From the NCBI GenBank assembly GCA_903933715.1, contig CAIZLD010000022.1, positions 1 through 64,000 of the forward strand: a stretch of DNA of 64,000 bases. The letters are read 5' to 3'. The DNA is from an uncultured Spartobacteria bacterium (lineage in GTDB: Bacteria > Verrucomicrobiota > Verrucomicrobiia > Chthoniobacterales > Chthoniobacteraceae). Shown here piece by piece: positions 2,434 to 31,847 of this stretch. The notes under the pieces were generated by a model. That model did not search any database and was not told the origin of the DNA. It saw only the letters and a list, made by a program, of their open reading frames with translations. Position 1 is the stretch's first letter, and each line of letters starts with the position of its first letter. The position numbers were made by a program, and so were the translations under genes.

Positions 2434-2750
2434 TGGTTCTGGATCGCCGCGACAAGGCAGGTGAGATTGGGAAGCGTGAGTTGAGAGCCGACCAGCCGCA
2501 CCACGCGCCAGCCGCCCAAGGCCGCTTCGAAGTATTTCTCGGAATCCGCGACGAACCCTGCGGCGCGGTTGTGGCGTCCGCCCACCCATACGCCGCCTTC
2601 CAGTTCAATCAACGTGCGGGATTCAAGGTGAGCGAAGTCGGCACGCCACCGCCGTGTAGGGTGAAACCGGAACTCTGTTTCCAGCTTGGGGCCATTGAGC
2701 GTTCGCCAGAGCAATTCAAACCGGCGTTCCAGTCGGGAAGGCTTGTTCAC
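2415..2750 (-). CDS. small PD-(D/E)XK-like endonuclease between terS and terL
   Basis: This 111 aa protein has an Asp in RADFA followed about ten residues later by the Glu of LIELEGG, in a short Arg/Trp-rich protein. That pattern matches DUF559/VSR-like single-domain nucleases. It starts at ATG 2750, inside an ATGA overlap with the terS-like stop, and overlaps terL by 19 bp, so the three genes look translationally coupled. A nuclease inside the packaging operon could nick or process DNA during packaging or act on host DNA; this role is inferred from position only. Confidence 0.6.
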   Translation of the reverse strand: MNKPSRLERRFELLWRTLNGPKLETEFRFHPTRRWRADFAHLESRTLIELEGGVWVGGRHNRAAGFVADSEKYFEAALGGWRVVRLVGSQLTLPNLTCLVAAIQNQWRTKN

Positions 2751-3367
2751 GGCGTGTTCCCCCCTCCGGTGTGGAGCACCTTGCAGACTTCATCGATAGC
2801 CCGGGCGCATTCCTCGCGGATTCCCTGAGCATCCTGGCCGCTCAGAATCGGCGGCAGTTCGTTTTCAAACTTGGCCCGCAGCAATGCAATGGCTTTGCCG
2901 ACCTGCGTGAGCCAGTCGCGCCGGACATCAGCCAACAGAGCAAACTCACCCTTTTTGATGCCGACCTTGAGTTCCCGTTCCTCCACTTCGGCCAGCAGCT
3001 TGCGCGCTTTGAGCGCCTCCTCGTTGGTGGTCGTGGGTTGGTTGGTCTTCAACCCGCGCACCCGGACGAACTCTCGCCATTCCGAAACCGGAAAATCGCC
3101 GTTGGGAAGGGTCTTGGGTGCGCCGTCGAGTTTCTGCCAGGTGCCGATTGTGCGGCGAGTGACACCCAGCAGGCTCGCAAGTTCCACCACGGTTTTGGCG
3201 TAGGCGGTGGCATCGGTGCAACCCGAGGCGCGAGCCTGGACCCGGGCGCGTTCCGCCACTGTGAGGGTTTTCCCTCCGGCGACTTTTTTGACGATGTTCT
3301 TGAACTCGGCGTCGAGAATTCGCTCCGCCATGTCGGCAGTGACGCCCTCTTGTGCTGTGCTGCTCAT
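2747..3367 (-). CDS. terS: terminase small subunit-like DNA-binding protein
   Basis: The 206 aa protein has a helix-turn-helix near residues 65-80 (ELASLLGVTRRTIGTWQK) resembling Nu1/MerR-type recognition domains. A long charged helical region (ALKARKLLAEVEERELKVGI) follows, as expected for oligomerising terminase small subunits. It is the first gene of the leftward operon with the nuclease and terL, overlapping the nuclease by four bases. ATG 3367 was chosen because it fits the domain and lies exactly 12 bases after a TTGACAC motif on the minus strand. The assignment rests on the HTH, the length and the position next to terL. Confidence 0.72.
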   Translation of the reverse strand: MSSTAQEGVTADMAERILDAEFKNIVKKVAGGKTLTVAERARVQARASGCTDATAYAKTVVELASLLGVTRRTIGTWQKLDGAPKTLPNGDFPVSEWREFVRVRGLKTNQPTTTNEEALKARKLLAEVEERELKVGIKKGEFALLADVRRDWLTQVGKAIALLRAKFENELPPILSGQDAQGIREECARAIDEVCKVLHTGGGNTP

Positions 3368-3379
3368 GCAGGGTGCCGG

Positions 3380-3386
3380 GTGTCAA
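3380..3386 (-). promoter_or_regulatory. start-associated TTGACAC motif of terS
   Basis: On the plus strand this reads GTGTCAA; on the minus strand it is TTGACAC followed by 12 bases and the terS ATG at 3367. It is the only minus-strand member of the set, and its spacing is identical to six plus-strand members. With the methyltransferase copy at 3394-3400 it forms a perfect inverted repeat with a 7 bp spacer. Confidence 0.6.
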
Positions 3387-3393
3387 TGCGGCG

Positions 3394-3400
3394 TTGACAC
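3394..3400 (+). promoter_or_regulatory. start-associated TTGACAC motif of the methyltransferase
   Basis: The spacer to ATG 3414 is 13 bases and contains GGAGGG, so this member has a Shine-Dalgarno sequence in addition to the motif. Confidence 0.55.
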
Positions 3401-3413
3401 CTGTGCGGAGGGC

Positions 3414-4727
3414 ATGAGCGACATTCCCGTTTTCTGTGCGCACACCGAGATGGTGGACATAGACAAGCTGATCCCCAACCCGCGCAACCCCAACCGTCAC
3501 CCGGAAGGCCAGATCAAACTGCTGGCGAAAATCATCAATGGCCAAGGATTCCGAAATGCAATCGTGGTTTCCAAGCGTTCCGGGTTTGTGATCAAAGGGC
3601 ACGGGAGACTGGATGCCGCGAAGCTGCTGGGGATGCCGCAGGTTCCAGTGGATTTCCAGGATTACGAGAGCGAGGCGGCGGAATGGGCCGACATGGTCGC
3701 TGACAACCGCATTGCGGAAATAGCCGAAACCGATGAGGACAGCCTCAAGGCACTGCTCAAGGAACTGGACGGCAAGATCGATCTCGACCTCACAGGTTTT
3801 GACGAGGACTCACTCGACGATCTTCTCGACCGCCTGGAAACCAATGAACCGGAAAGCAATACCGTCACGCCCCCGCCCGCGAACCCCATCACAAAACCGG
3901 GCGACCTTTACGAACTCGGGAATCACCGGCTGTTGTGCGGCGACTCCACTAATGTTGACGATGTCAGGCGCGTGATGAATGGCGAACGTGCGATCCTCTT
4001 TGCCACGGATCCGCCCTATCTCGTGGGGTATGATGGGACGAACCACCCCGGCACCCGGCCTAAAACCAACACTGATTGGTCGGAAACCTACGGCCCGTCG
4101 TGGGACGAGGCCGACGCAGAGCAGAACAACGACCTTTATGACCGCTTTATTAAAGCGGCGATTGCAGAAGCCATCGATCCCCATGCCGCATGGTATTGTT
4201 GGCACGCCAGCCGCCGACAGCGGATGGTGGAGGATGCATGGGAGAAGAATGGGGCTTTCGTTCACCAGCAGATCATCTGGGCGAAACCGAACCGTCCAAT
4301 TCTCACCCGGTCGTGGTTCCTGTGGGCGCACGAGCCCTGTTTTATGGGGTGGATCAAAGGAAACAAGCCACCGCGCGAGTCATCCGATTACGAGCGGAGC
4401 GTTTGGGAAATCGAGGGCTTGAACAACGACGAGCGTCCCGACCACCCCACGCCCAAGCCTCTGGAATGCTTCGCTGTCCCCATGCGCCAGCATACGAAAA
4501 AGGGTGAGCTGTGTTTCGAGCCGTTCTCCGGTAGCGGCAGCCAATTAATCGCTGGGGAACAACTCGGTCGCCGGGTTTACGGTCTCGAAATCTCGCCCGC
4601 CTACTGCGACGTTATCGCACGCCGGTGGCTGGCGCTCGGGGATGGTCGCCGGGTGATCTGCAATGGGGAGGACGCGACAGCCCAATTTGAAAAAGCTGTG
4701 GAAATTGACACGGAGCCAACGGCATGA
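3414..4727 (+). CDS. ParB-like domain fused to N4/N6-type DNA methyltransferase
   Basis: This 437 aa protein should transfer methyl groups to adenine or cytosine amino nitrogens in phage DNA. Residues 10-110 form a ParB/sulfiredoxin-like domain (KGHGRLDAAKLLG at 71-83), and residues 165-437 form a beta-class methyltransferase in which the catalytic motif DPPY (199-202) precedes the AdoMet motif FSGSG near the C-terminus. ParB-methylase fusions are common in phages and probably protect DNA or modify packaged genomes. The frame is open upstream to 3207, but that part overlaps terS on the other strand. ATG 3414 has an SD and the shared motif, so I use it. It overlaps the next gene by ATGA. Confidence 0.9.
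   Translation: MSDIPVFCAHTEMVDIDKLIPNPRNPNRHPEGQIKLLAKIINGQGFRNAIVVSKRSGFVIKGHGRLDAAKLLGMPQVPVDFQDYESEAAEWADMVADNRIAEIAETDEDSLKALLKELDGKIDLDLTGFDEDSLDDLLDRLETNEPESNTVTPPPANPITKPGDLYELGNHRLLCGDSTNVDDVRRVMNGERAILFATDPPYLVGYDGTNHPGTRPKTNTDWSETYGPSWDEADAEQNNDLYDRFIKAAIAEAIDPHAAWYCWHASRRQRMVEDAWEKNGAFVHQQIIWAKPNRPILTRSWFLWAHEPCFMGWIKGNKPPRESSDYERSVWEIEGLNNDERPDHPTPKPLECFAVPMRQHTKKGELCFEPFSGSGSQLIAGEQLGRRVYGLEISPAYCDVIARRWLALGDGRRVICNGEDATAQFEKAVEIDTEPTA
4705..4711 (+). promoter_or_regulatory. start-associated TTGACAC motif of the lysis lipoprotein gene
   Basis: The motif lies inside the last codons of the methyltransferase (encoding Ile-Asp-Thr). A 12-base spacer beginning GGAG leads to ATG 4724. 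Confidence 0.55.
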
Positions 4728-5416
4728 ACACCATCCTTGGCGCTAACTGGCGCACTACCCTGAGCGGCTGGATCGCGGTCATCGCATCTGCCATTGCCAT
4801 CAACCCCGCACTCGTTGCGTTCCTCCCCGAAGCAGCGCGTAATTACGTGACCGGCGTCGCGGGAATCCTTGCCGTCATCTCCGGCGGCACGTTTGCCAGT
4901 CAGGCAAAGGACCGGCAGGTTACCGGCGGCACGGTCCAGAACGATCCGCCCGCTCCCATAAAAGGGAACGGCATCACCCCGCTGATTGCCCTGGCGCTCC
5001 TGCCACTGTTTGCCCTGAGTGGTTGCGCTTGGGTGGAGAGACACCACCCGCAGATTGACGCCACACTGGGCGTCGTGGGCGCACGGGCGTTGGCCGTGGC
5101 GGAAAAGGTTCTCATTTCCGTCGCCGTGGATGAGGCGGACAAAAACTTCAAAGCGGACTTTCTGGATTCTGTTGCCGCCGGTCTTCGGGCGAATGAAACG
5201 ACTATCGTCAATTCGGACGACGTCTCAAGGATTGTGCGCATCTGGAGCCCGAATGACGGGTCCGCCTGGCAGGCACTCGCAGGGAACCTCAGCACTGTTG
5301 CGGGCAATGCGCTGGCATCGGCGGGACAAACCAAATCCGCAGTCATCGTAGAGAACATCGCCGCCGGGTTGAACGATGCCGCCTCGAAAGCCCGCGCAAC
5401 CACTCCTGCGCAATAA
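4724..5416 (+). CDS. holin-like membrane protein fused to a lipoprotein
   Basis: The 230 aa protein has two N-terminal hydrophobic segments (about residues 13-32 and 42-60), a Pro/Lys linker, then a third hydrophobic stretch ending in the lipobox-like LSGC (Cys near residue 101) and a soluble alpha-helical tail. The first part resembles small phage holins. The second resembles a secreted outer-membrane lipoprotein such as an o-spanin. It sits directly before the endolysin, so it probably belongs to the lysis cassette. A lipobox inside one continuous ORF is odd: either an internal non-ATG start makes the lipoprotein separately, or the fusion is processed. No Met lies between the halves. Confidence 0.55.
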   Translation: MNTILGANWRTTLSGWIAVIASAIAINPALVAFLPEAARNYVTGVAGILAVISGGTFASQAKDRQVTGGTVQNDPPAPIKGNGITPLIALALLPLFALSGCAWVERHHPQIDATLGVVGARALAVAEKVLISVAVDEADKNFKADFLDSVAAGLRANETTIVNSDDVSRIVRIWSPNDGSAWQALAGNLSTVAGNALASAGQTKSAVIVENIAAGLNDAASKARATTPAQ

Positions 5417-5420
5417 TCCC

Positions 5421-5915
5421 ATGTTTGCTTGGTTTCTTCGACTTTTCGGCTTCATTGACACCCCCACTTCCACCGCCATGACCTTCGACGCCCGCACAGA
5501 ATCAAACATAAACACGCTCCTTCCCGCCGCACAGGCCAAGGCTCGCGAGTTCATGGAGGCGTGTCTTGCTGCGGGGATTCCGCTCAAGATCATTTGCGGC
5601 ACCCGGACCTACGAGGAGCAGGACGACCTTTATGCCCACGGGCGCACCAAGCCCGGCCCAATCGTGACCAGGGCACGGGGCGGGTATTCCTGGCATAACT
5701 TCGGGATCGCTTGGGATGTCGGGATTTTCGACGGAATACGATATATCGGGGAGTCGCCCCTATACGCAAAGGCCGGGGAAATTGGTAAGTCGTTAGGGTT
5801 GGAGTGGGGCGGCGACTGGCCGGGAATCGAGGATCAGCCTCATTTTCAGCTCAAACTCGGCCTCACCCTGGCTAACTGCCGGGAGCGTGTCGCCAAGGGC
5901 GAAGCCATCGCCTGA
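5421..5915 (+). CDS. endolysin, peptidase M15-like (L-Ala-D-Glu / D-Ala-D-Ala peptidase)
   Basis: This enzyme cleaves peptidoglycan stem peptides at lysis. The zinc-site pattern of M15C peptidases is visible: SWHNFGIAWD (S-x-H-x6-D type) and the later HFQLK histidine. The ORF can start at ATG 5421, four bases after the previous stop, giving 164 aa with a hydrophobic leader (MFAWFLRLFGF), or at ATG 5478, giving 145 aa beginning MTFDARTESN. The second resembles the usual N-terminus of this endolysin family and has the TTGACAC motif 16 bases upstream. Both products may be made. I list the longer form. Confidence 0.82.
   Translation: MFAWFLRLFGFIDTPTSTAMTFDARTESNINTLLPAAQAKAREFMEACLAAGIPLKIICGTRTYEEQDDLYAHGRTKPGPIVTRARGGYSWHNFGIAWDVGIFDGIRYIGESPLYAKAGEIGKSLGLEWGGDWPGIEDQPHFQLKLGLTLANCRERVAKGEAIA
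5455..5461 (+). promoter_or_regulatory. TTGACAC motif before the internal endolysin start
   Basis: It lies inside the longer endolysin reading frame, 16 bases before ATG 5478. This is the longest spacer of the set and marks 5478 as a probable start. Confidence 0.4.
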
Positions 5916-5916
5916 T

Positions 5917-5923
5917 TTGACAC
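5917..5923 (+). promoter_or_regulatory. start-associated TTGACAC motif of the gpW-like gene
   Basis: It begins two bases after the endolysin stop. The 12-base spacer is almost pure C/G without any purine-rich Shine-Dalgarno, so the motif is the only visible start signal for ATG 5936. Confidence 0.6.
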
Positions 5924-5935
5924 CGCGCCCCCCGC

Positions 5936-6196
5936 ATGGCGCAAGGTCTCTTCACCACCGGATTCTCCGTAGCCGAAGTTCTCCAAATCCAATCCAAAGC
6001 CAAGGAACTGCTCATTGAGGGCAAGACCGCCATGGCATGGGGCGACAGCGGCTCGACGGTTTCCAAACAGTTCCCCATGACGGTCAAAGAAGTCTTGGAC
6101 GAGTGCAAATACGCGCTTCGCGTCCTTGATCCTGTCACCTACGGCCCGCGCCGGAACGTCGCCCAATCGGGCGTCACCGGCTATCTCCCGCTATGA
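5936..6196 (+). CDS. gpW-like head completion / head-tail joining protein
   Basis: At 86 aa it is the size of the lambda gpW family and has the expected order immediately before the GpB-type portal, with a four-base ATGA overlap. Small helical proteins of this family bind the portal after packaging and prepare it for tail attachment. The central run TVKEVLDECKYALRVLD and the Gly/Ser-rich middle look like gpW relatives. The assignment is by length, order and general similarity. Confidence 0.62.
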   Translation: MAQGLFTTGFSVAEVLQIQSKAKELLIEGKTAMAWGDSGSTVSKQFPMTVKEVLDECKYALRVLDPVTYGPRRNVAQSGVTGYLPL

Positions 6197-7662
6197 ATCC
6201 CCTCGCTCGATTTGTTACCCGCCTGATCCCACCCATCCTTATCCCCAAGGCGTGGTGGTCGGCGTATGAGGGGGCGAACTTCACCACCCGCCGCGCACGG
6301 GTGCCCGGTGTGCCGCCGGGGGACGCCAAGCGTGATCTTTCGCCGTCCGTCCGCACGGAACTGGTGCGGCGATCCCGTTACCTTCACAAGAATTCTGGGT
6401 TCGTTCGTGAATTGGTGGGAAACATGGTGATTTATTCCACGGGCGACGGCATCCGGCCCCAGGCGCAATCCGCCAATCCCGAGTGGAACCGTCTCGCCGA
6501 GGAGTATTTCGCACTGTGGGCCGCCCGCTGCGAGACCACCCGGCGATTCTCCTTTGAAGAGTGCCAGTCGATCATCTGCCGGGCGGTCGATGTGGATGGC
6601 GAATATTTCGTCCACAAGACGCGGGATCGTGATGGACGCCCGCAAATTCAATTGATCGAAGCCCACCGCGTGGGCGACAGCGCGGGATCGAAAGATACCG
6701 TGGATGGCATTGGCGTCGATGCGTTCGGCGCTCCGCTCTTTTACCGCACGATCGAGGACGGCGGCGGCACCCGCGATTTGCCTGCCGAGGCCGTGCTTCA
6801 TATTTTCGAGCCGGAATCCGCGACGGCGATCCGCAATCCGCCAATCCTCCAGCACTCGATCAACCACATCCTGGACGAGATGGAATTGCTCGCCTTGGAG
6901 AAACACGCGGTAAAGGACAACGCCGACATCGCCCGCGTGCTCAAGACCGAGCGTGGCGAGATCAGCGAGGATGGTGATTTTTCCCTCCCGTCCACAGCGG
7001 GCACAGCGGAACCGAGCGATCCTGTGTCACTCCAGCGGATCGTTGGAGGCAAGCTGGTGGCGCTCAAACCGAATGAATCCATCGACTCATTCGAGTCCAA
7101 GCGCCCGTCGCCCACCTTTACTGGTTTTTTGGAACACATCCGCCGAGACGCAGCCCTTGGCGTGTTGCCGTTTGAGTTCGCGGCAGACTCTTCAAAGATC
7201 GGCGGTGCGGGGGTTCGCCTCATTGTGGCGAAAGCCGACCGTCGGTTCTCCTACCGGCAATTGATCCTGATCCAGCGTTTCCTGCTGCCCGTTTGGGCCT
7301 ACGTCATTGCGGACGGTATCACGCGAGGCGAGCTTCCCGTGCAGCCGGGCTGGCATAAGGTGCGCTGGCAAAAGCCGAAAAAGGTCACCGTGGATGCGGG
7401 CCGAGAAGCCCAGCAGAACCGGGCGGACGTGGAGACCGGTCTCAAAACACTCTCGGAATCTTACGCGGAACTCGGGCTCGATTTTGATGAACAGGCGGAA
7501 ATTCGCGCCCAAGACGCCCGCCTGATGATCGATCTGGCGGCGAAATATCAAATTCCGCTCGAAATGCTCTACCGCCCGAGCACCGGTGCCGTGGTTCTAG
7601 CTGAACCCTCCAACGAAGTCGCTCCCCCATCACCTGTCGTTGACACGCCCCCATCAGCGTGA
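6193..7662 (+). CDS. phage portal protein, lambda GpB family
   Basis: This 489 aa protein forms the dodecameric DNA entry channel at one capsid vertex. Typical features are an N-terminal Arg-rich region, the segment LVRRSRYLHKNSGFVRELVG, the IQLIEAHRVGD stretch, an ETG-to-DADPLSFPF-type region replaced here by FLEHIRRDAALGVLPFEF, and a C-terminal tail rich in Pro. It overlaps its neighbours by ATGA (6193) and GTGA (7659). Its C-terminal residues VDTPPSA are fixed at the DNA level by the TTGACAC motif and start of the next gene. Confidence 0.93.
   Translation: MNPLARFVTRLIPPILIPKAWWSAYEGANFTTRRARVPGVPPGDAKRDLSPSVRTELVRRSRYLHKNSGFVRELVGNMVIYSTGDGIRPQAQSANPEWNRLAEEYFALWAARCETTRRFSFEECQSIICRAVDVDGEYFVHKTRDRDGRPQIQLIEAHRVGDSAGSKDTVDGIGVDAFGAPLFYRTIEDGGGTRDLPAEAVLHIFEPESATAIRNPPILQHSINHILDEMELLALEKHAVKDNADIARVLKTERGEISEDGDFSLPSTAGTAEPSDPVSLQRIVGGKLVALKPNESIDSFESKRPSPTFTGFLEHIRRDAALGVLPFEFAADSSKIGGAGVRLIVAKADRRFSYRQLILIQRFLLPVWAYVIADGITRGELPVQPGWHKVRWQKPKKVTVDAGREAQQNRADVETGLKTLSESYAELGLDFDEQAEIRAQDARLMIDLAAKYQIPLEMLYRPSTGAVVLAEPSNEVAPPSPVVDTPPSA
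7640..7646 (+). promoter_or_regulatory. start-associated TTGACAC motif of the S49 protease gene
   Basis: It lies within the last portal codons (Val-Asp-Thr). Twelve bases, with no Shine-Dalgarno, separate it from GTG 7659. It supports the GTG as the true start. Confidence 0.6.
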
Positions 7663-8966
7663 CTCTCGCTGAAACTCTCCTCCTCAAACAACCGTGGTTA
7701 ATTTCGCCCGACTCCCTTCGGGCCATGACTGCCGCCGCTCAGGCGTTCTTTGCCAACCCGCAGGAACTTCCCGCGCCCGCACAATCTACTGCCCTCTCTA
7801 TTGAAGATGGCGTGGGCGTAGTTGCAATCGGTGGGCCGATGATTCGGAAGGCCGACATCCTCTCGCAGATCCTATTCAACGCGGTCGATACCGAGGAAAT
7901 CACCGCCGCTGTGCGCGAAGCCGCGTCCCGACCCGACATTGAAGCCGTTTTCCTGGACATTGATTCCCCCGGCGGCACCGTCACCGGCACACCGGAATTG
8001 GCGCAGGCCGTGGCCGATGCGGGCAAGCAAAAGCCGGTCTATGCATTTTCCTCCGGGCTCATGTGCTCGGCAGCGTATTGGGTGGCGAGCCAGGCACAGG
8101 CGGTTTACGTCACACCGAGCGCACGGGTCGGTTCCATCGGCGTCATCCAGCCGATTTTCGATGAATCCGAGGCGTTCAAGAATGCCGGGATCAAGGTGGA
8201 AGTGTTCGCTGCTGGGAAATTCAAGAGCATCGGCGTGCCCGGCGTGCCGCTCACCGATTCGCAGAGGGAGTGCATCCAGAGCAACATCGCGGAGACGGCA
8301 GCGGAATTCCATACCGCCGTCTTGTCCCGTGGCCGGAAGATTCCTGCGGAAGCAATGGAAGGCCAGGATTTCTCCGGCAAACAGGCGCAACGGATGAACC
8401 TCGCGGGCCTGGTGCGTGACCGGGCGGACGCCATCCAGCGACTCCGTTCCTATCATGTCTCGTTCAAAGCGCAGGCGCGGCGGGTTGACACCGATCCCCT
8501 TGCAATGAAACCCATCGAGGACCAATTGCAGGAAGCCCTGGCGCGCATCCAGACGCTTGAAACCGACGCGCAAGCCAGCGCCAACCTTCTCTCAGAGGCG
8601 TCGGCAAACGCCGCGTCTCTGGAAAGACAGATGGCGCTCTGGGGCGAGGAACGCACCTGCCTCACTGCCGATCTCGCCACCGCCCGGCAGTCCATCGAAT
8701 CGCTCACGATCCGCAACAAGGAACTGGAGGCGAAGGAGCAGGACCTCGAAGCACGTGTGGCGCTCCGTTCCGCGCAGGTCGTTTCCTTCACCGGCACGCA
8801 GGTTCCCGCCAAGATTTCCCCGGCTGGGGACACCGAGTTGGCGAACGTCGCCAGCGCCACCGCCGAGGAGCGCATCGCCCATTACAACAACCTAGTCAAA
8901 GCCAAGCAGCCCAAGGCGGCGGCTGAGTTCTACCAGAAGCACATCCAACCCCTCTTCAACCACTAA
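7659..8966 (+). CDS. S49 family head maturation protease with C-terminal scaffold domain
   Basis: This 435 aa protein is comparable to lambda gpC. Residues 50-260 are a ClpP/SppA-like fold: IDSPGG (102-106 region), nucleophile Ser137 in MCSAAYW, and Lys near 187-189 in AAGKFKSIG. Residues 283-435 are helical and rich in Gln, Glu and Ala, matching a scaffold. The protease cleaves the scaffold and itself during prohead maturation. The GTG start gives GTGA overlap with the portal stop and is preceded by the shared motif. The gene is directly before the major capsid gene. Confidence 0.9.
   Translation: MTLAETLLLKQPWLISPDSLRAMTAAAQAFFANPQELPAPAQSTALSIEDGVGVVAIGGPMIRKADILSQILFNAVDTEEITAAVREAASRPDIEAVFLDIDSPGGTVTGTPELAQAVADAGKQKPVYAFSSGLMCSAAYWVASQAQAVYVTPSARVGSIGVIQPIFDESEAFKNAGIKVEVFAAGKFKSIGVPGVPLTDSQRECIQSNIAETAAEFHTAVLSRGRKIPAEAMEGQDFSGKQAQRMNLAGLVRDRADAIQRLRSYHVSFKAQARRVDTDPLAMKPIEDQLQEALARIQTLETDAQASANLLSEASANAASLERQMALWGEERTCLTADLATARQSIESLTIRNKELEAKEQDLEARVALRSAQVVSFTGTQVPAKISPAGDTELANVASATAEERIAHYNNLVKAKQPKAAAEFYQKHIQPLFNH
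8485..8491 (+). promoter_or_regulatory. TTGACAC motif inside the protease gene, before the nested scaffold start
   Basis: It is located in the middle of an open reading frame where no gene junction would otherwise be suspected, 13 bases before an in-frame ATG at 8505. The linker is C-rich like the others. Confidence 0.55.
8505..8966 (+). CDS. nested in-frame capsid scaffold protein (Nu3-like)
   Basis: Translation from ATG 8505 gives 153 aa in the same frame as the protease, starting MKPIEDQLQEALARIQTLET. The first 100 residues are a continuous heptad-like helix rich in Ala, Glu, Gln and Leu; the C-terminus ends with a basic/aromatic tail (EFYQKHIQPLFNH), as in capsid scaffolds that bind coat protein. 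Lambda uses the same plan, with Nu3 nested in gene C. The separate start is inferred from the TTGACAC motif 13 bases upstream. No Shine-Dalgarno is visible. Confidence 0.6.
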   Translation: MKPIEDQLQEALARIQTLETDAQASANLLSEASANAASLERQMALWGEERTCLTADLATARQSIESLTIRNKELEAKEQDLEARVALRSAQVVSFTGTQVPAKISPAGDTELANVASATAEERIAHYNNLVKAKQPKAAAEFYQKHIQPLFNH

Positions 8967-8970
8967 GGAG
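8965..8970 (+). promoter_or_regulatory. strong ribosome binding site of the capsid gene
   Basis: AAGGAG lies eight bases before GTG 8979. This is a canonical Shine-Dalgarno for the most abundant phage protein, and the TTGACAC motif is absent here, so the two start signals seem to be alternatives. Confidence 0.75.
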
Positions 8971-8978
8971 TTTTCCCT

Positions 8979-9881
8979 GTGCCCAACGTAAACGCCACAG
9001 TAAATGCCCCGCTGATTGCCCAGCAGGCGCTCACCACGCTGCTCGCCAAATTCCCTGTCCTGACGCAGATCGCCACGGATTTCAGCGATCAGTCGGTAAA
9101 GTTCAACCAGGACATCGTCTCTCATATCGTCACGCCCACCGTTGCGCAGGACTTCGATCCCGCCACGGGTTACGTCCCGAGCGATCAAGCGCAGGTGGAC
9201 GTGAAAGTGAAAATCGACCGGCACGCCTACGCGGGCTACGCCATCACGGACGTGGAGCGTTCCAGCAGCGTGATCGACCTGAACCAGCGTTACGCCGATA
9301 AGGTGGCCTACGCGCTTGGGCGGAAGGTCAGCGACGATCTCTTCGGACTCATCGTGGCCGCGAACTTCACGAACAAAACGGAGGTGGACGCTGCCACGTT
9401 CGGGCGCGACATCATCGTGGACGTCGCCACAAAGATGAATAAGCGGTTCATCCCAGATATGGGCCGGTTCATGTTCGTCAATTCCGACTACTACAACTCG
9501 CTCCAGAAGGACGAAGCACTTTATAAAGCCTACATCGCTCCGCAGGTGGGTGACGTTGTCGTGACCGGCGTGCTGCCCAACGTGAATGGGTTCACCGTGG
9601 CGGAGTATTCCGCGCTCCCCGAAAACGGCGAGCGGCTCATGGGGTTTGCGGGCATCCGCGAGGCGCTCATTATGGCGGCGCGCGTGCCGGACGTTCCCGA
9701 ACACACGGGTGACACGTCCATCAGCATCGTGACCGACGCCCGCACCGGGCTTTCCGTCCAGGTGCGCGACCGCTACGACGGGCGACTTGGTAGGCAGGAA
9801 GTCAGCTACACGCTGATGTATGGCTTCACGGCGGCGAACAAGCCGATGCTGGAGCGGATCGTCGCCCCGGCTCCGAAGTAA
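8979..9881 (+). CDS. major capsid protein
   Basis: This 300 aa coat protein follows the protease/scaffold gene as in lambda-like and HK97-like heads. It has an N-terminal Asn/Ala-rich arm, an early helix (QQALTTLLAKFPVLTQIA), the beta-rich KVKIDRHAYAGYAITD strand pair, a helical spine region (NQRYADKVAYALGRKVSDDLF), and a C-terminal SYTLMYGF strand. These features fit HK97-fold coat proteins. The GTG start is supported by AAGGAG. An intrinsic terminator follows 30 bp after the stop. Confidence 0.88.
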   Translation: MPNVNATVNAPLIAQQALTTLLAKFPVLTQIATDFSDQSVKFNQDIVSHIVTPTVAQDFDPATGYVPSDQAQVDVKVKIDRHAYAGYAITDVERSSSVIDLNQRYADKVAYALGRKVSDDLFGLIVAANFTNKTEVDAATFGRDIIVDVATKMNKRFIPDMGRFMFVNSDYYNSLQKDEALYKAYIAPQVGDVVVTGVLPNVNGFTVAEYSALPENGERLMGFAGIREALIMAARVPDVPEHTGDTSISIVTDARTGLSVQVRDRYDGRLGRQEVSYTLMYGFTAANKPMLERIVAPAPK

Positions 9882-9955: not shown

Positions 9956-9962
9956 TTGACAC
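9956..9962 (+). promoter_or_regulatory. start-associated TTGACAC motif after the terminator
   Basis: It is one of the few copies in non-coding DNA, 15 bp past the terminator, with a 12-base spacer to GTG 9975. Confidence 0.58.
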
Positions 9963-9974
9963 CCCACCACCGGG

Positions 9975-10283
9975 GTGAACATCAAACGCGAAAAAGCCGC
10001 CGATCTGGTGGGGATATTGGATGAAGTCGGGGAAGCGGTGACGTGGAACGGGCGCACATTGCGGGCGCTCGTGTCCGATCCGGCCATTGGGGAAAATCTG
10101 GAGCTAGGCGGATTCACCGGCACCGGGGATTTCACTATCAAGATTCCCCGCACGGCATTCGGGATTCAGTTGCCCAAGCTGGGCGAGATCGTCGGGTTTG
10201 AAGGGAATCGGTTCCGCATCGTGCGGATTACGAACCACCCGCAGTATCCCATGATCGTGTTGGTCGTAGGCCCACTGGAGTAA
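9975..10283 (+). CDS. putative head-tail connector protein, 102 aa
   Basis: Small beta-rich protein (GTGDFTIKIPRTAFG, then GNRFRIVRITNHPQYPMIVLVVG) in the place where lambda carries gpFII and siphophages carry head-tail connectors, between coat and tail-terminator genes. The GTG start is chosen because the TTGACAC motif lies 12 bases before it; no SD is visible. Function is inferred from position and size. Confidence 0.6.
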   Translation: MNIKREKAADLVGILDEVGEAVTWNGRTLRALVSDPAIGENLELGGFTGTGDFTIKIPRTAFGIQLPKLGEIVGFEGNRFRIVRITNHPQYPMIVLVVGPLE

Positions 10284-10697: not shown

Positions 10698-10704
10698 TTG
10701 ACAC
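10698..10704 (+). promoter_or_regulatory. start-associated TTGACAC motif of the small tail gene
   Basis: It starts three bases after the previous stop. The spacer to ATG 10719 is 14 bases. A naive reading would begin the protein with the TTG of the motif itself, which I reject. Confidence 0.5.
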
Positions 10705-10718
10705 GGTGCTACAGGTGT

Positions 10719-11048
10719 ATGCCTGCCACTGATGTAAAATTTGGAATCACAAAACACGAGGGCGCGCTCATCGACTCCGTGGAAGTGGAGAAGAAGATCG
10801 AGCAAAAAGCGCTCAAGGGCTCCGACGGCAACGTTGCCCGCGTCCATGTCTACAACCCCACCAACTCCGGTTCCGTGAAGGGACACGGTGCATTGACCGT
10901 TGTGCCGGGCGTGGGCGATGCGGGCGTTTCCGGCATCACTGGCGGCGTTACCGTGATCACCAGCGTGAAGGAATCGGAGAACAACGAGGATTTCGACGGC
11001 TGGGAATACCAGTTTGAGCACTACCCGAATGCAGAGGAGGTTTCGTAA
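10719..11048 (+). CDS. small tail protein, possibly tail tube related, 109 aa
   Basis: It begins MPATDVKFGITKHEG and is predicted mostly beta (RVHVYNPTNSGSVKGHGALTVV). It sits between the tail-terminator-like gene and the chaperone genes, where the tube protein is expected, but it is shorter than usual tube proteins (about 140-250 aa). ATG 10719 is preferred to the in-frame TTG at 10698. It overlaps the next gene by one base. Confidence 0.5.
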   Translation: MPATDVKFGITKHEGALIDSVEVEKKIEQKALKGSDGNVARVHVYNPTNSGSVKGHGALTVVPGVGDAGVSGITGGVTVITSVKESENNEDFDGWEYQFEHYPNAEEVS

Positions 11049-12119: not shown

Positions 12120-12778
12120 ATGTCCACATGAAATTCGACATGCGGCGGCTGCAACAGGCGATCAAGAGCTTGGAACCGAACGTCAAGAAGTCGCGCAAGG
12201 AACTCGTGGAGCAGGCAGCCAAAGGTTTCGTCAAAACGGTGGCCACAGTCACCCCTCCGGGCTCCAAAGGAGCAACAGGCAGCACGGCCAAGAAACAGGG
12301 CGAAGCGGCGATCAAAAGCGATCTGGCAAAAGTGATGAAAGCAGTTCGGGCGAGAAAGGGAGCCCAGCTTCAATCGGCGCAGGACATCTACAAGCGATTC
12401 CGGGACAAAAACACCGGGCGCATCAATCCGCGCAACCTCCAGAATCCGTATCCGGTTTCCAGTGCAGAATACAACGCTCTCAGGAAAACCTTGCTCGCCC
12501 GGGTCGGCTGGCTCGCTTCCGGCTGGAACGCCGCTGCACAGAAGCTCGGCGTCAAGCTGCCTGCCTGGATCACCCGGCACGGCACCGGGGCGGGCGTCAT
12601 CCTTGTGACCAATGATGGGCGGCGCTTCCGCATCGAGATTTCCAACGCCGTGAAATTCGTGGGGAACGTCAAAGATCTGGACCGGCGCATCCAGAAGGCG
12701 ATCACCTACCAGGCCAACGCCATGCAGCGGCAGGCGGATTTCCTTCTGAAGAAGGCGATCAAGAAGGCTGGGTTTTGA
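12116..12778 (+). CDS. basic phage tail-region protein, 220 aa
   Basis: ATG 12116 overlaps the stop of the chaperone extension. The protein is Lys/Arg-rich with helices (MRRLQQAIKSLEPNVKKSRKEL; ITYQANAMQRQADFLLKKAIKKAGF). It resembles the HK97-gp10-like tail-completion type in size and charge, but I cannot confirm that. The last codon plus stop (TTTTGA) form part of the next TTGACAC motif. Confidence 0.6.
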   Translation: MNVHMKFDMRRLQQAIKSLEPNVKKSRKELVEQAAKGFVKTVATVTPPGSKGATGSTAKKQGEAAIKSDLAKVMKAVRARKGAQLQSAQDIYKRFRDKNTGRINPRNLQNPYPVSSAEYNALRKTLLARVGWLASGWNAAAQKLGVKLPAWITRHGTGAGVILVTNDGRRFRIEISNAVKFVGNVKDLDRRIQKAITYQANAMQRQADFLLKKAIKKAGF

Positions 12779-12781
12779 CAC
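12775..12781 (+). promoter_or_regulatory. start-associated TTGACAC motif of the tape measure gene
   Basis: The TGA inside the motif is the stop codon of the preceding gene. The spacer to ATG 12794 is 12 bases and C-rich, without SD. Confidence 0.6.
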
Positions 12782-12793
12782 CGCCCCCTTGGC

Positions 12794-14365
12794 ATGTCCG
12801 CCAAGGCCACAGCCATCTTTGAAGCCGATGACAAGCAGCTCAGCAATGCGCTCTTGAACATCAACCGCAAGCTGCTCGCCTTCCAGCACACCATTGCTAA
12901 ACTCGCCGTCGGATGGGAGGCGCTCAAAAAGGGCGGCGAGATGGTGGCCCAGGGAGTGGAACATTTCACGGCGGCGCTGGAAAAAGGCGGTCAGTTGCTG
13001 GACCTTTCCAACAACATCGGTATCGCGGTAAAAGACCTGGCTGTTCTGCAACAGCAGTTCAAACTTTCCGGCAAAGCCGCCGAGGATGTGGGGCCGGTCA
13101 TGGCCAAGATGATGAAGAACATCGAAACCGGCTCGGCGGCGGGAACCATCAAGCGGCTTGGGCTGGACATGGACGATCTCCGCAAAAAGACGCCGTCCGA
13201 GCAATTTCAGGCGATTGGTGAAGCAATCAATAAACTTCCCGACCCAGCGGAACGTGCCACGGCGGCAATGGACGTTTTTGGCAAGAGCGGCGCGACCCTC
13301 CTGGCGGTATTCGCCGACAAGAGCTTTGGACAGGCGGCAGAACAGGTAGGCAATCAGGCCGAACTGTTGAACCGGGATGCCGCGCTGTTCGATGACATCA
13401 GTGACAAACTCGCAACGGCGGGTCTGAAAGTTCAGGGTTTCTTTGTCGGCGTAGCAGATCGTGTGGCCCCAGTGATTAAACCGTTGCTGGACAAGTTTGC
13501 TTTACTCGACCTTTCCTCACTGGGGCAGCAGGTAGGCGACTTTGTTGCGCTGTTTGTCCAGGCGTTCCAGGACGGGAAACTCGGTGAGGTGGTGCTGACA
13601 TCGATGGAACTCTCTTTCGCCACCGCCGCAAATTTCCTCATGGGACTTCTGACCGGCCTTGGTAGCGCACTGGCTGAGATGCTCATGCAGGGGCCAAAGA
13701 ACGCCCTGACCATGCTGCAACTGGCCACCACCGCTGATTTCTGGAAAGGACTGGGAGCATCGTTGCTGAGCATGGCCGCCAACTTCACCGCCGCGTTGCT
13801 GGATGGTGTTGCCATGTTGATCGACAAGCTGAGTGGCATTCCAGGGATCGGAAACAAGATTCATGGTGGTGCAGAGGCGATCCGTTCCAAGGCGACAGAA
13901 TTGAGGGAAGGCGCTGCCGTCCTTGGGGATTACGGAGCCGACAAGCTCACCCCGGCATTGGCAGCCATCAAAGCGCGTGCGGCCGAAGAATTGAAAGCCA
14001 TTGCTGAAGCAGCCGGGAAAGGGTTTGACCAGGGTAACTCTATCATCGACACCAGCGGCATCTCCAAGCGGCTCGACAAAGTGGTGGGCGAAGTGATGAA
14101 CCATGCCCAGCACGCCCAAGATGAAGCACTTAAAGAGTTGCCGACAAAAACACCCAACGCTCCCACGGGTGAAGATTTCATAGCCAAGCCAGCGTTCTCG
14201 CATCTCCAGAAAATCGGCGGTGGCGGCTACACCAGCGGCGGCGATCCGCTCCTGACCGAGTCGCGCCAGCAGACCCGTGAACTGCGGGAACTTAACCGGG
14301 GCGTGAAAGTGCTCATTGAAAAGCAGCCGAAAACGACTGGTGGTTTCACCCCGGTATTTACGTAA
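12794..14365 (+). CDS. tail tape measure protein
   Basis: This 523 aa protein follows the G/GT chaperone as expected. It combines an N-terminal Ala/Lys helix region, a conserved stretch typical of tape measures (GSAAGTIKRLGLDMDDLRK and FQAIGEAINKLPDPAERATAAMDVFGKSGATL), central hydrophobic segments (ANFLMGLLTGLGSALAEML) that can insert into host membranes, and a C-terminal charged region. Its length sets tail length and suggests a shorter tail than lambda, whose tape measure is 853 aa. It overlaps the next gene by one base. Confidence 0.88.
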   Translation: MSAKATAIFEADDKQLSNALLNINRKLLAFQHTIAKLAVGWEALKKGGEMVAQGVEHFTAALEKGGQLLDLSNNIGIAVKDLAVLQQQFKLSGKAAEDVGPVMAKMMKNIETGSAAGTIKRLGLDMDDLRKKTPSEQFQAIGEAINKLPDPAERATAAMDVFGKSGATLLAVFADKSFGQAAEQVGNQAELLNRDAALFDDISDKLATAGLKVQGFFVGVADRVAPVIKPLLDKFALLDLSSLGQQVGDFVALFVQAFQDGKLGEVVLTSMELSFATAANFLMGLLTGLGSALAEMLMQGPKNALTMLQLATTADFWKGLGASLLSMAANFTAALLDGVAMLIDKLSGIPGIGNKIHGGAEAIRSKATELREGAAVLGDYGADKLTPALAAIKARAAEELKAIAEAAGKGFDQGNSIIDTSGISKRLDKVVGEVMNHAQHAQDEALKELPTKTPNAPTGEDFIAKPAFSHLQKIGGGGYTSGGDPLLTESRQQTRELRELNRGVKVLIEKQPKTTGGFTPVFT

Positions 14366-23938: not shown

Positions 23939-24342
23939 TCACCATACCTCTCTCCAAGCTCCAATCCGCCGCCACCCTGAAAGCCCCCGGCTATTATGAT
24001 GCCTGTATCGCGGCGGGAACTGTGGTGGGGGATAATCTCGAACTTTCCGAGAGCGCGTTTGCCCAATTGCGCGCCCAGTTCTCGCCACCGCCGATCACAC
24101 AGCAGATTCAATCTGCCGCCGGTGCCGTTGTGGCGGAATGCGGGGCATTTCTTTCGGGCGAACCCTCTGTCGATGATGTGACGAAAGCCGCTCGTCTCGC
24201 TGTTTGCGAGGGGTGCGAGTTCTTCATTATTGCCGACCGGCGCTGCCAGAAATGCGGTTGCTGGATGGAGGTCAAGGCGGGGTTTCGCACGGCGACTTGC
24301 CCCGAAGGCAAGTGGCCGGTTGACACGACACCTTCCGCGTGA
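23935..24342 (+). CDS. zinc-ribbon phage protein (DUF6171-like)
   Basis: The 135 aa protein ends in a four-Cys zinc ribbon: CEGCEFF then RRCQKCGCWM, then CPEGKW, a pattern found in small phage proteins. The N-terminus begins MITIPLSKLQ. It overlaps the previous gene by ATGA and the next by GTGA, and its final codons (VDTTPSA) hold the next TTGACAC motif. A diverged copy is at 62424-62831. Confidence 0.65.
   Translation: MITIPLSKLQSAATLKAPGYYDACIAAGTVVGDNLELSESAFAQLRAQFSPPPITQQIQSAAGAVVAECGAFLSGEPSVDDVTKAARLAVCEGCEFFIIADRRCQKCGCWMEVKAGFRTATCPEGKWPVDTTPSA
24320..24326 (+). promoter_or_regulatory. start-associated TTGACAC motif of the tail fibre gene
   Basis: Twelve bases to GTG 24339, no SD. 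The matching place in the second prophage has TTGAAAC (minus strand, plus-strand bases 62440-62446) with the same 12-base spacer, but the fibre frame there stops after four codons. Confidence 0.58.
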
Positions 24343-27300
24343 AGATCACTGTTAATCTCGACACCCAGGCCATCATCACCCAGCCATCGCCTTTACGCTT
24401 CAAGGCGGGCTGTTATAACCCGGTGGAGGTGGTTTTCACCCGCGGCTCCCAGTCCGTCCCCCTGCCTCACGGCACGGTGATCGAGTTCGCGCTTAAGCCA
24501 CGCAATCAGTGGACGGGTGGGTTGCTGGCATATCTGAACACGTTCACTCCCGGAGCTGGCAGCATTTACACGGGCTCGCTCAATTGCGCTTCCGCCGCGA
24601 TGCTGGCCGCGCTCGGTCTTTCCGACGAGGTTCCTGCCAATGACGTCGCCAATCTCGATGCAAGCGCCGAGGTTTCGTGGAGTTTTGGGGGGCAGAAGTT
24701 CCGCTCGGCCACGTTCTCCGTGACCGTGGAGGCTCCATTGACGGACGAAAGCCCCATCGCAACGCCCGATCCTGAACGCTACCCGCAGCCCGAAGCTATT
24801 GCGTTGAAAACGGATATTCCCGAAGTCGGGACCGCTGCCGCGCTCAATGCCGGGGAACCCAATGGCGCAGCCACACTCGACGGAAACGGCAAGCTCAAGG
24901 GGACGCAGGTGCCCGGCGCAGTTGCGCTCAAGAGCGATCTCATGCCAATGGGTTCCAGCCGGATTGTGATTGCGGATAGGTTTTCCCTGGCAAATCTCCC
25001 CACGGTTGACGTGAACGGTAATCCGATTGCCGAAGTGTATGTGGGGGATGTGGTGCATCAGACAGGAACGCCAGCAACGCCCCGAACGGCTGTGGTGCAG
25101 TTTGTGGATCACACCATCACGGATGATGACGTGAACTACGGCTATGGCAGCCGGTTTTTTGACGAGAATGGCTGGGAGGCGATGCTCGCATTTTCGTGGT
25201 TCGGCGGCAGCAGCGCAACGGTGAGCGCCTTCGATCTGGCAAACACGTTCGCCAACCAAGTCAACAGTTCTGGCCTCAATGCATATGCCACTGTAACGGG
25301 CAACGGATCACAGGTGACGATCATGAGCTACACCCAGGGGCCGCTCCCTGGCGGTTGGGGTTTCATGGATGATTCCGGCACGGCTTCCTATTCGGAAACC
25401 GAAGGTGCAGCCTCCCTTCCTCCCGGCGATTTCATCGTGGTTGATCTTGCCAATCTTGGCAATGCCACGGGTTATCAGGGAATCGGCGACACGGTCGATT
25501 TCCTAAGCGGCTACGGAGCACCGACGCTAGACATCGGCGAGGAAGGCAACGGCTACGTCGATCAAAATAACGGCGATTTTTACCACCGGGACGCCTCGGG
25601 GTGGCAGTTCGTGCTTAACATCAAAGGGCCGCAGGGAAACCAGGGAGCGCAAGGTCCGCAGGGGAATCAAGGACCCCAAGGGATTCCGGGCCTTGTGGTA
25701 GCTGAATGGAACGGAACCAATGTAAATAACTACTCGTGGTTCTCGGAGGGCACCATATCCAATTACAACGGGACAACTTACGTCTGTAAACAGTCGTACA
25801 TGTCCAACAAGATGAACCAGTCCGAGATCCTCATCAATCCTCAGTTCTGGGGCGTGTGGGTCGGCCCGGGGTTGGTGTGGAAAGGAGCTTGGAATTCGTC
25901 AACGGCTTATATTGTGAATGACGCGGTGTCTTCGGGAGGCAGCAGCTATCGCTGCATCCTGGCACACACCAACCAAGCCGTCACCAACACGACTTACTGG
26001 GCGGTAGTCGCGCAAGCCGGTGCAACCGGACCCGCAGGTCCAACCGGTGCCACCGGAAGAACAGGCGGAATCCCGGCACCCTTTTACGCAGCCCGGTTGA
26101 TCAAGAGTTCGTGGGCATCTACCACATGCCCCTCGCAACCCAGCATCGGCCGCATGGCATGGTCGCCCGAGCTTGGACTATTCGTAGCCGTCGGGGGGAG
26201 CGCCGCAACGACCTCTATCTTTACATCACCAGACGGGGTTACGTGGACTGCCCGAAATAATCCAGCCAGCGCCAGTAACATTTTCACCGGAGTGGTATGG
26301 TGTCCCGAACTTGGGCTGTTTGTGGTTCAATCGAATTACAGCACACCCCTGTCATCTCCCGACGGGATTACATGGACAGCCCGCACCGGATCATCCGCCG
26401 GAACGTGGATTTCCATGGCATACTCCCCACAACTGAAATTGATCATTTCATGGGGGACATCTTGGTCTGCAGGTGTTTTAACTTCTTCGGATGGCGTTAC
26501 GTGGACAAGGAATACCGGGATAGCCGCTTTCAACGGCGGGCCCGGCCAGGGTTCAACGGCGTGGGCTCCAGAGCTGGGGCTCTTTTGCACAATCATCGGC
26601 AATGGCCCGAATAGCACCGCGATGACATCGCCCGACGGGGTGACATGGAGCAGCTATAATCTGCCTTCCACGATGAACCTCAGCTATGGATATCCTGGTC
26701 ATCTGTGCTGGTCACCGGACCTTAAAACCTTCATTACCGGAGCAGGCACGAACCAAGTGGCCATTTCAAAAGACGGAGCTAACTGGACCGTGTATCCGTG
26801 TCCAACGACGATTGGAAACCTGGATGTCATTCACTGGGCAGCCGAGTTCGGGCTTTTTGTGGTTATCGGGGGCGGGACGAATGCAATCTATACCTCACCG
26901 GATGGCATCAACTGGACAACGACCTCGGGCGTATTACCCACTACCGGAAACTGGAATGCCTGTGCATATTCCCCGGAGCTGGGGATCATTGCTGCGATTA
27001 ACAAAAACAGCACAGCGGCGACGACGTCGTGCTATCCCAGACAGTGGACTGCGAATGGATGCTTCTATACGCCCGCCGCCACGATGGTTGCCAACATCGC
27101 GGCTGTTGTGCCGTCCAGGTGCCGCTGGAGCCGCCAAGGGCGCGTGGTTTATGCTGAAGGCAGCATCCAGATTGATCCGACAACCACGGCCACGCTCACA
27201 CAGTTGCGCCTTTCATTGCCAGTCCCAAGCACGTTCATCGCGACCACGGATTTGTCTGGGACATTCTCAGGCGCTCCAGCAAACCACGCCGGGAGCATTG

Positions 27301-27404
27301 CGGCAGATACCGCCACGGGAACTGCTCTCCTGAGCTACACCCCCACAGATGTAACGAACCAGACGGTGGCATTTTCGTTCAGCTACGCAGTCATGCCTTT
27401 CTAA
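24339..27404 (+). CDS. tail fibre with collagen-like repeats and a seven-bladed beta-propeller
   Basis: This 1021 aa protein is the probable receptor-binding fibre. The N-terminal 150 residues resemble a virion anchor (BppU-like, by eye). Residues 428-452 are collagen-like Gly-x-y repeats (GPQGNQGAQGPQ), and another short Gly-x-y run precedes residue 580. Between them is a chitin-binding-like module (VWKGAWNSSTAYIVNDAVS). Residues about 590-900 repeat WSPELGLFV-type segments seven times, alternating with SPDGVTWT-type turns, which suggests a seven-bladed propeller for sugar binding. The GTG start is set by the overlap and motif. Confidence 0.8.
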   Translation: MKITVNLDTQAIITQPSPLRFKAGCYNPVEVVFTRGSQSVPLPHGTVIEFALKPRNQWTGGLLAYLNTFTPGAGSIYTGSLNCASAAMLAALGLSDEVPANDVANLDASAEVSWSFGGQKFRSATFSVTVEAPLTDESPIATPDPERYPQPEAIALKTDIPEVGTAAALNAGEPNGAATLDGNGKLKGTQVPGAVALKSDLMPMGSSRIVIADRFSLANLPTVDVNGNPIAEVYVGDVVHQTGTPATPRTAVVQFVDHTITDDDVNYGYGSRFFDENGWEAMLAFSWFGGSSATVSAFDLANTFANQVNSSGLNAYATVTGNGSQVTIMSYTQGPLPGGWGFMDDSGTASYSETEGAASLPPGDFIVVDLANLGNATGYQGIGDTVDFLSGYGAPTLDIGEEGNGYVDQNNGDFYHRDASGWQFVLNIKGPQGNQGAQGPQGNQGPQGIPGLVVAEWNGTNVNNYSWFSEGTISNYNGTTYVCKQSYMSNKMNQSEILINPQFWGVWVGPGLVWKGAWNSSTAYIVNDAVSSGGSSYRCILAHTNQAVTNTTYWAVVAQAGATGPAGPTGATGRTGGIPAPFYAARLIKSSWASTTCPSQPSIGRMAWSPELGLFVAVGGSAATTSIFTSPDGVTWTARNNPASASNIFTGVVWCPELGLFVVQSNYSTPLSSPDGITWTARTGSSAGTWISMAYSPQLKLIISWGTSWSAGVLTSSDGVTWTRNTGIAAFNGGPGQGSTAWAPELGLFCTIIGNGPNSTAMTSPDGVTWSSYNLPSTMNLSYGYPGHLCWSPDLKTFITGAGTNQVAISKDGANWTVYPCPTTIGNLDVIHWAAEFGLFVVIGGGTNAIYTSPDGINWTTTSGVLPTTGNWNACAYSPELGIIAAINKNSTAATTSCYPRQWTANGCFYTPAATMVANIAAVVPSRCRWSRQGRVVYAEGSIQIDPTTTATLTQLRLSLPVPSTFIATTDLSGTFSGAPANHAGSIAADTATGTALLSYTPTDVTNQTVAFSFSYAVMPF

Positions 27405-31495: not shown

Positions 31496-31847
31496 AAAAA
31501 AGGCAGCAGGGGGAGGTCGCCAACCTTCGGTACGAGTTTTGGAGCAATAGAATAACACTCGTCCGAAGGAGCGCGCCATTTGCGCGTTACGGCGCCGTCA
31601 AACAAAGAACTAATCCATTGCCAAGCTGCCGAGTAATCATTCCGGCAAAATCGCACCCGCTGGTATTCACGGCGGTTGTTTCGGTGTTTACGGGCACACC
31701 TCCCTCGAGGCCCTTGCTGCTCCAAATGCATAAAGGGGTTTAAGCGGGTGCTGCTTTCGTATGGATTCCGGTTTTAACACTAAGCCATTCGCTCCGCATT
31801 TACCGACCGGCCTTATGAATCGCATTTTTTTTCATGCGCGTGAATTT
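31496..31847. other. non-coding gap upstream of the recombinase
   Basis: Contains only the probably untranslated N-terminal extension of the recombinase frame and short ORFs with no recognisable product. No clear promoter or terminator could be picked out. Confidence 0.35.

What the first reader, a model, noticed from the sequence alone, without database searches (positions are those of the whole stretch)
8485..8966. Nested in-frame scaffold gene revealed by the start motif inside the protease gene
The motif lies mid-gene, 13 bases before an in-frame ATG, at the exact border between the S49 protease domain and a helical scaffold-like tail. Lambda makes Nu3 from inside gene C in the same way. 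The motif therefore predicts a start that gene finders would miss.
Basis: partly seen in the sequence, partly recalled or inferred. Interest (0 to 1): 0.62.

Follow-up and report, generated by a model that had tools for sequence, protein, structure and literature searches.

The report
Nested phage scaffold gene, motif-marked start
A bacterial virus of Verrucomicrobiota hides a second gene inside its head-protease gene: a short DNA tag (TTGACAC) marks an internal start that makes the head-building scaffold on its own, and relatives that carry the scaffold as a fully separate gene show that the start is real.

Summary
TTGACAC lies at 8485-8491, 13 bases before the in-frame ATG at 8505 (residue 283 of the 435-aa S49 head protease), in a disordered linker between the protease domain and a long helix. 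It is not chance. In 132 of the 135 loci compared (window included), a motif copy (at most one mismatch) precedes the scaffold reading frame; the other three end before the site or are broken. In 109 it is fused, with an in-frame ATG exactly 20 nt from the motif. Of 131 conserved amino-acid columns, only V276 (GTT 86/86) and D277 (GAC 88/88) use one codon; together they spell GTTGAC. In 15 loci the scaffold is a separate ORF, five in another frame and two 0.3-1 kb away, always behind the motif. That is strong genetic evidence for independent synthesis. The motif is a phage-wide start signal in Verrucomicrobiota phages (starts 19, 20 or 22 nt downstream), was not found at host starts, and replaces Shine-Dalgarno. 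Lambda C/Nu3 works alike, but the scaffolds are not detectably related. Still inferred: scaffold function, expression, and whether the motif acts in mRNA (favoured) or as a promoter for near-leaderless transcripts. New variant of a known kind.

The parts
7640..7646 (+). Start motif TTGACAC of the full-length protease gene (19 nt before GTG 7659)
   Evidence: same spacing before the protease start in nearly all relatives
7659..8966 (+). Head maturation protease-scaffold fusion, 435 aa, 46.6 kDa (S49 domain + tail)
   Evidence: Pfam PF01343 4.9e-28; phrog_53 head maturation protease 3.6e-55
8485..8491 (+). Internal start motif TTGACAC (GTTGACAC from 8484), in the codons V276-D277-T278
   Evidence: GTT 86/86 and GAC 88/88 in relatives
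8505..8966 (+). Nested in-frame scaffold gene, 153 aa, 16.7 kDa, pI 5.3, mostly one long helix plus a C-terminal three-helix segment
   Evidence: separate ORF in 15 relatives
6193..7662 (+). Portal protein gene, directly upstream
   Evidence: PF05136 5e-39
8979..9881 (+). Major head protein gene, directly downstream; has a Shine-Dalgarno (AAGGAG 8965-8970) and no motif
   Evidence: phrog_283 2.1e-26; sequence
3380..3386 (-). Start motif of the terminase small subunit gene (2747-3367, -)
3394..3400 (+). Start motif of the ParB/DNA methyltransferase gene (3414-4727); back to back with the previous one
4705..4711 (+). Start motif of gene 4724-5416
5455..5461 (+). Start motif of the endolysin (5478-5915, +23)
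5917..5923 (+). Start motif of gene 5936-6196, directly upstream of the portal gene
9956..9962 (+). Start motif of gene 9975-10283
10698..10704 (+). Start motif, ATG at 10719 (+21)
12775..12781 (+). Start motif of the tape measure gene 12794-14365
24320..24326 (+). Start motif of the tail fibre gene 24339-27404

Best explanation
The 3' third of the S49 head-protease gene is also a gene of its own. Initiation at ATG 8505, marked by the start-associated element TTGACAC 20 nt upstream and not by a Shine-Dalgarno, gives a 153-aa, 16.7-kDa coiled-coil scaffold that shares frame and stop with the 435-aa protease-scaffold fusion. Most likely initiation takes place on the late polycistronic mRNA. The free scaffold would drive assembly of the major head protein, the same segment on the fusion would bring the protease into the procapsid, and the protease would then destroy the scaffold. 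SHOWN by sequence and comparison: the motif, the conserved internal ATG, selection on nucleotides rather than amino acids, the phage-wide link of motif to starts, and independent scaffold ORFs in relatives. INFERRED: the scaffold role, the excess of free scaffold, targeting of the protease, and that the motif acts at the RNA level.
For: (1) Motif plus in-frame ATG at exactly +20 in 109 fused loci, protein identity down to about 45%, and +23 in 3 more. (2) In 88 distinct fused genes, 131 columns are conserved in amino acid; the only two with a single codon in 98% or more are V276 = GTT (86/86; GTT is 13.6% of other Val codons) and D277 = GAC (88/88; 57.6%). (3) Natural separation: stop at or just before the motif with the scaffold in the same frame (L026, L027, L057, L062, L066, L139, L142) or directly after the protease stop (L140); scaffold in a different frame (L133, L134, L136, L144 and Chthoniobacter flavus L138); scaffold about 0.3 kb (L145) and 1 kb (L146) downstream; always behind the motif. 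(4) TTGACAC is start-associated throughout: 222 sense against 6 antisense, starts at 19/20/22 nt; only 7 of 279 motif starts of the two main classes have a Shine-Dalgarno of 4 or more bases. (5) Position between portal and major head protein, with head maturation protease family hits. (6) Scaffold model: one helix 4-96 and three short C-terminal helices, pLDDT 88.
Against: No expression or peptide data. No scaffold family recognises the tail with confidence; the hits are generic coiled coils. Five fused loci have the motif but no ATG at +19 to +23: L108 and L127 at +29; L125, L130 and L131 at +35 with ATT at +20. No reader of the motif is known: no full complement in the host 16S, no bS21 and no sigma factor above cut-off in ten phage records. 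Back-to-back motif pairs with only 7-10 bp between them fit a DNA element at least as well as an mRNA element.
Confidence: 0.87

Rival explanations
1. The motif is a phage-specific promoter element, not a ribosome-binding element. Transcription starts at about the conserved G 17 nt after the motif start and gives near-leaderless mRNAs, so the scaffold comes from its own transcript.
For: The G at motif+17 stays fixed to the motif while the start codon moves from +19 to +23. Back-to-back motifs 7-10 bp apart at the terminase-small/methyltransferase gene pair in several lineages leave about 45-50 bp between start codons, with no room for a sigma70 promoter plus leader. Motif starts lack SD, and Akkermansia is classed as SD-scarce in PMC10783764.
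Against: The spacer is 65-80% G+C, poor for promoter melting. TTGACA cannot be an ordinary -35 box, because its -10 box would fall inside the gene. No phage-type RNA polymerase (control silent, so weak) and no sigma factor above cut-off was found. The motif sits inside packed operons and coding sequence.
Confidence: 0.33
2. The motif is an operator or stoperator-like silencing site that merely lies near starts, and the internal copy has nothing to do with scaffold synthesis.
For: One orientation and many copies in prophage late genes.
Against: Tight 12-13-nt spacing to start codons; the internal copy keeps the same spacing to an ATG that starts a free-standing gene in relatives.
Confidence: 0.05
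3. VDT-x-M is conserved only as protein sequence, for example as a self-cleavage site that releases the scaffold from the fusion.
For: V276, D277 and T278 are invariant in the first 21 proteins aligned; some phage proteases do process themselves (general knowledge).
Against: A single codon is used at V276 and D277 while other conserved Val sites vary freely. Relatives keep the nucleotide motif in another frame or across a stop codon where VDT is not encoded. Variants TTGACAT/A/G that change T278 keep motif and ATG.
Confidence: 0.04
4. Only the full-length fusion is made in this prophage; the motif is a relic of an earlier separate-gene state.
For: Separate-gene loci lie outside the main fused clade on the midpoint-rooted protease tree, so fusion may be the derived state.
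Against: Codon-level purifying selection on the motif in 88 distinct fused genes speaks against a relic in general.
Confidence: 0.04

Closest known systems
Phage lambda gene C / Nu3 (protease with nested scaffold)
   Same: S49 protease in the head operon just after the portal gene; an internal in-frame start makes a scaffold that shares the stop codon (lambda annotation; the overlap of C and Nu3 is cited in PMC8508860).
   Different: Only the S49 domains align (hhalign 99.3%, residues 43-264); the scaffold tails do not. Lambda Nu3 starts at gpC residue 239 of 439, inside the aligned S49 region; here the start is after the domain, at 283 of 435. The start is marked by TTGACAC here.
Start-associated sequences (SAS) of Cluster K mycobacteriophages (PMC3203893)
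   Same: Phage-specific, one orientation, many copies per genome, at start codons, rare in the host; function unproven.
   Different: SAS is the 13-mer GGGATAGGAGCCC with a Shine-Dalgarno core, 3-7 bp from the start, in non-structural genes. Here a 7-mer without SD, 12-13 nt from the start, in structural genes.
SppA / S49 signal peptide peptidases
   Same: Family of the protease domain: PDB 3rst and 4kwb at about 4e-24 over residues 47-260.
   Different: Phage head version with a scaffold tail; not a membrane peptidase.

Membership tests
Nested protease/scaffold gene pair of the lambda C/Nu3 kind (architecture) | S49 head protease encoded between portal and major capsid genes | tested here: met
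Nested protease/scaffold gene pair of the lambda C/Nu3 kind (architecture) | Internal in-frame start with shared stop | tested here: met
   sequence and conservation with independent ORFs in relatives; initiation itself not measured
Nested protease/scaffold gene pair of the lambda C/Nu3 kind (architecture) | Tail is a helical, scaffold-like protein | tested here: met
   AlphaFold2 pLDDT 88, helix 4-96 plus three C-terminal helices; helical shape is not specific to scaffolds
Nested protease/scaffold gene pair of the lambda C/Nu3 kind (architecture) | Short product present and needed for procapsid assembly | not testable with these tools
   needs wet-lab work
Lambda Nu3 scaffold family (sequence) | Detectable homology of the scaffold with Nu3 | tested here: not met
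   profile alignment covers only residues 43-264, none of the tail; one lambda sequence against a 21-row profile, so weak homology could be missed
Cluster K mycobacteriophage SAS | 13-bp GGGATAGGAGCCC with SD core, 3-7 bp from the start | tested here: not met
   motif is TTGACAC at 12-13 nt; almost no SD (definition)
Cluster K mycobacteriophage SAS | Start-associated, one orientation, phage-specific | tested here: met
Sigma70 -35 promoter box (TTGACA) | -10 box about 17 bp downstream of it, upstream of the gene | tested here: not met
   17 bp after TTGACA lies inside the first codons of the gene; logos show no TATAAT there
Shine-Dalgarno site | Complementary to the 3' end of 16S | tested here: not met
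   host 16S end is the usual CCTCC; no 16S stretch pairs over the whole motif

The most novel reading that the evidence does not exclude
Verrucomicrobiota tailed phages use a phage-specific, Shine-Dalgarno-independent initiation element (G-TTGACAC-N9-GG, 12-13 nt 5' of the start codon), read by an unknown phage or host factor, and have built a nested scaffold gene on it; fused, split and displaced versions of the scaffold gene record how a nested gene can arise by fusion of two neighbours that keep the second start signal.
Probability: 0.55. Interest if true: 0.8.

Novelty: new variant of a known kind. Interest (0 to 1): 0.64.

Why it matters
Gene finders report one protease where these phages appear to make two proteins, so the scaffold, essential for head assembly in lambda, is missed. 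The motif gives a rule for calling starts in a large group of mostly uncultured phages, and it raises a testable question: how do phages of SD-scarce Verrucomicrobiota start their late genes, and what reads TTGACAC? The fused and separate versions also show a plausible path to nested genes.

Tried and rejected
(a) Chance placement: rejected by relatives. (b) Host-wide start signal: 0 of 158 host genes (about 212 kb) have TTGACA at 19-23 nt; in the own genome 7 of 12 TTGACAC-N12-DTG sites lie in this window and 4 of the other 5 (C18 twice, C19, C39) look like other prophage pieces. (c) Ordinary sigma70 promoter: no -10 box where needed. (d) Sigma54-type -24/-12 promoter: the GC lies about 3 nt too far from the motif (my reading of the logos). 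(e) Pairing with 16S rRNA: no stretch pairs with the whole motif. (f) Hairpin between motif and start: only small excesses over shuffled pairing, no consistent stem. (g) Phage RNA polymerase, sigma factor or bS21 as reader: none above cut-off in ten phage records, but the RNA-polymerase control rang nowhere. (h) Depletion of the antisense motif as a test for DNA-level action: inconclusive, since an unrelated word of like composition is also depleted. (i) Naming the scaffold by profile or fold: only coiled-coil or weak matches. (j) Literature: no paper found on a TTGACAC start motif in phages or on start motifs of Verrucomicrobiota prophages in the held open-access library.

Full report
WHAT IS THERE. 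The window is the start of contig C22 of a 2.8-Mb genome and opens with a prophage: terminase large (619-2589, -) and small (2747-3367, -), a ParB/DNA methyltransferase (3414-4727), an endolysin, portal (6193-7662), the S49 head protease (7659-8966), the major head protein (8979-9881), tape measure, tail fibre and a large serine integrase (29942-31579, -). The finding concerns the protease gene. TTGACAC is at 8485-8491, and 13 nt later, in frame, is ATG 8505, residue 283 of 435. The nested frame encodes 153 aa, 16.7 kDa.

DOMAIN BORDER. Pfam S49 ends at residue 263. The predicted structure ends its last protease helix at 266, is of very low confidence from 267 to 284 and then forms one helix 286-378 followed by three short helices (mean pLDDT only 65). 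Modelled alone, with 31 relatives, the tail is confident (pLDDT 88): helix 4-96 and three C-terminal helices.

THE MOTIF IS A START SIGNAL OF THIS PHAGE GROUP. In the window TTGACAC occurs 13 times (6.7 expected), and most copies are followed 19-23 nt later by the start of a long ORF. In 80 related viral loci (725 kb) it occurs 222 times on the gene strand and 6 times on the other; the starts lie at +19 (100), +20 (64) and +22 (38). Logos read G-TTGACAC-[CG]-N8-GG(C)-start; the G at motif+17 seems tied to the motif, not to the start codon. A Shine-Dalgarno of 4 or more bases is present in only 7 of 279 motif starts of the two main classes. The motif is tied to phages of Verrucomicrobiota: loci from Verrucomicrobiaceae, Akkermansiaceae, Chthoniobacter, Prosthecobacter and others have it; S49 relatives in Desulfoluna, Hymenobacter, Flavobacterium and Alphaproteobacteria show almost none at starts. 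Host genes of this genome do not use it: 0 of 158.

THE INTERNAL START IS REAL: THREE ARGUMENTS. First, conservation of arrangement: 109 fused loci (window included) have the motif (at most one mismatch) and an in-frame ATG at exactly +20, and three more at +23. Second, conservation of nucleotides: in 88 distinct fused genes, among 131 columns whose amino acid is at least 90% conserved, only two use a single codon in 98% or more: V276 = GTT (86 of 86) and D277 = GAC (88 of 88), that is, GTTGAC of the motif. Elsewhere in the same genes GTT is 13.6% of Val codons and GAC 57.6% of Asp codons. Relatedness of the sequences makes a simple binomial P-value too small, but the other conserved Val columns, on the same tree, do vary. 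Third, natural separation: in L026, L027, L057, L062, L066, L139 and L142 a stop codon at or before the motif ends the protease frame and the scaffold is a separate ORF in the same frame (L140 has it directly after the stop); in L133, L134, L136, L144 and Chthoniobacter flavus L138 the scaffold is in another frame; in L145 and L146 it lies about 0.3 and 1 kb further on. All have the motif before it. In those loci the motif does not encode V-D-T, so the nucleotides and not the peptide are what is kept. Altogether 132 of 135 loci show motif plus scaffold frame; L141 and L147 end before a site is seen and L143 is broken or unresolved there.

EXCEPTIONS. L108 and L127 (Prosthecobacter) have the first ATG at +29, and L125, L130 and L131 at +35 with an ATT at +20. 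Either spacing is looser there or a non-AUG start is used; untested.

EVOLUTION. A maximum-likelihood tree of 104 protease domains puts 95 fused proteins in one supported clade (99/88); separate-gene phages lie outside it, and one fused phage (L068) groups with separate L057 (96/91), so at least two changes are needed. With midpoint rooting this suggests that separate genes fused and kept the second start signal. Rooting is not secure, and some separate-gene branches are long.

HOW IT WORKS. Shown: a conserved, selected internal start; a protein that exists as its own gene in relatives. Inferred: it is the scaffold (position between portal and major head protein, helical form, nested with the protease as in lambda); the free form outnumbers the fusion; the fusion delivers the protease into the procapsid. 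Open: whether the motif is read on RNA or DNA. For RNA: tight spacing to the start codon, loss of SD, G+C-rich spacer, position in packed operons. For DNA (near-leaderless transcripts): the second G tied to the motif, and back-to-back motif pairs 7-10 bp apart at the terminase-small/methyltransferase pair of several phages, leaving about 45-50 bp between start codons. I favour RNA at roughly 60 to 35. Both make a separate scaffold, so the main conclusion does not depend on it.

COMPARISON. Lambda C/Nu3 is the closest precedent for architecture (annotation; both needed for growth in PMC10695390). Only the S49 domains align. Start-associated sequences of Cluster K mycobacteriophages (PMC3203893) are the closest precedent for a phage-specific start tag, but differ in sequence, spacing, SD content and gene class. 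PMC10783764 lists Akkermansia among SD-scarce bacteria, which fits a need for another signal. I found no report of this motif; most subscription papers are not held.

VERDICT. Observation confirmed, interpretation supported. New variant of a known kind: nested scaffold genes are known; the non-SD start tag and the fused/separate series were not found described.

Noticed in passing
window 3367-3414; also L019, L021, L025, L029, L055, L133: Back-to-back start motifs, 7-10 bp apart, at the terminase-small/ParB-methyltransferase gene pair, with about 45-50 bp between start codons; both arms have a long ORF in window, L019, L029, L055 and L133. Hints that the motif may act at the DNA level.
   Followed up: partly
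window 3207-4727, 5376-5915, 10698-11048: The motif moves other starts: methyltransferase to 3414, endolysin to 5478 (+23), and 10719 instead of 10698.
   Followed up: no
L125, L130, L131 (protease/scaffold border): ATT at exactly +20 from the motif where others have ATG: possible non-AUG initiation.
   Followed up: no
G000 contigs C18 (25907, 37258), C19 (75247), C39 (22476): Further motif-bearing phage-like stretches elsewhere in the same genome, probably other prophages.
   Followed up: partly
L145, L146 (Akkermansia MAGs from ruminants): Roughly 0.3 and 1 kb of other sequence lies between protease and scaffold genes.
   Followed up: no
window 31579-31601 (-): Integrase gene start has a near-motif TTGACGG at +22.
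   Followed up: no
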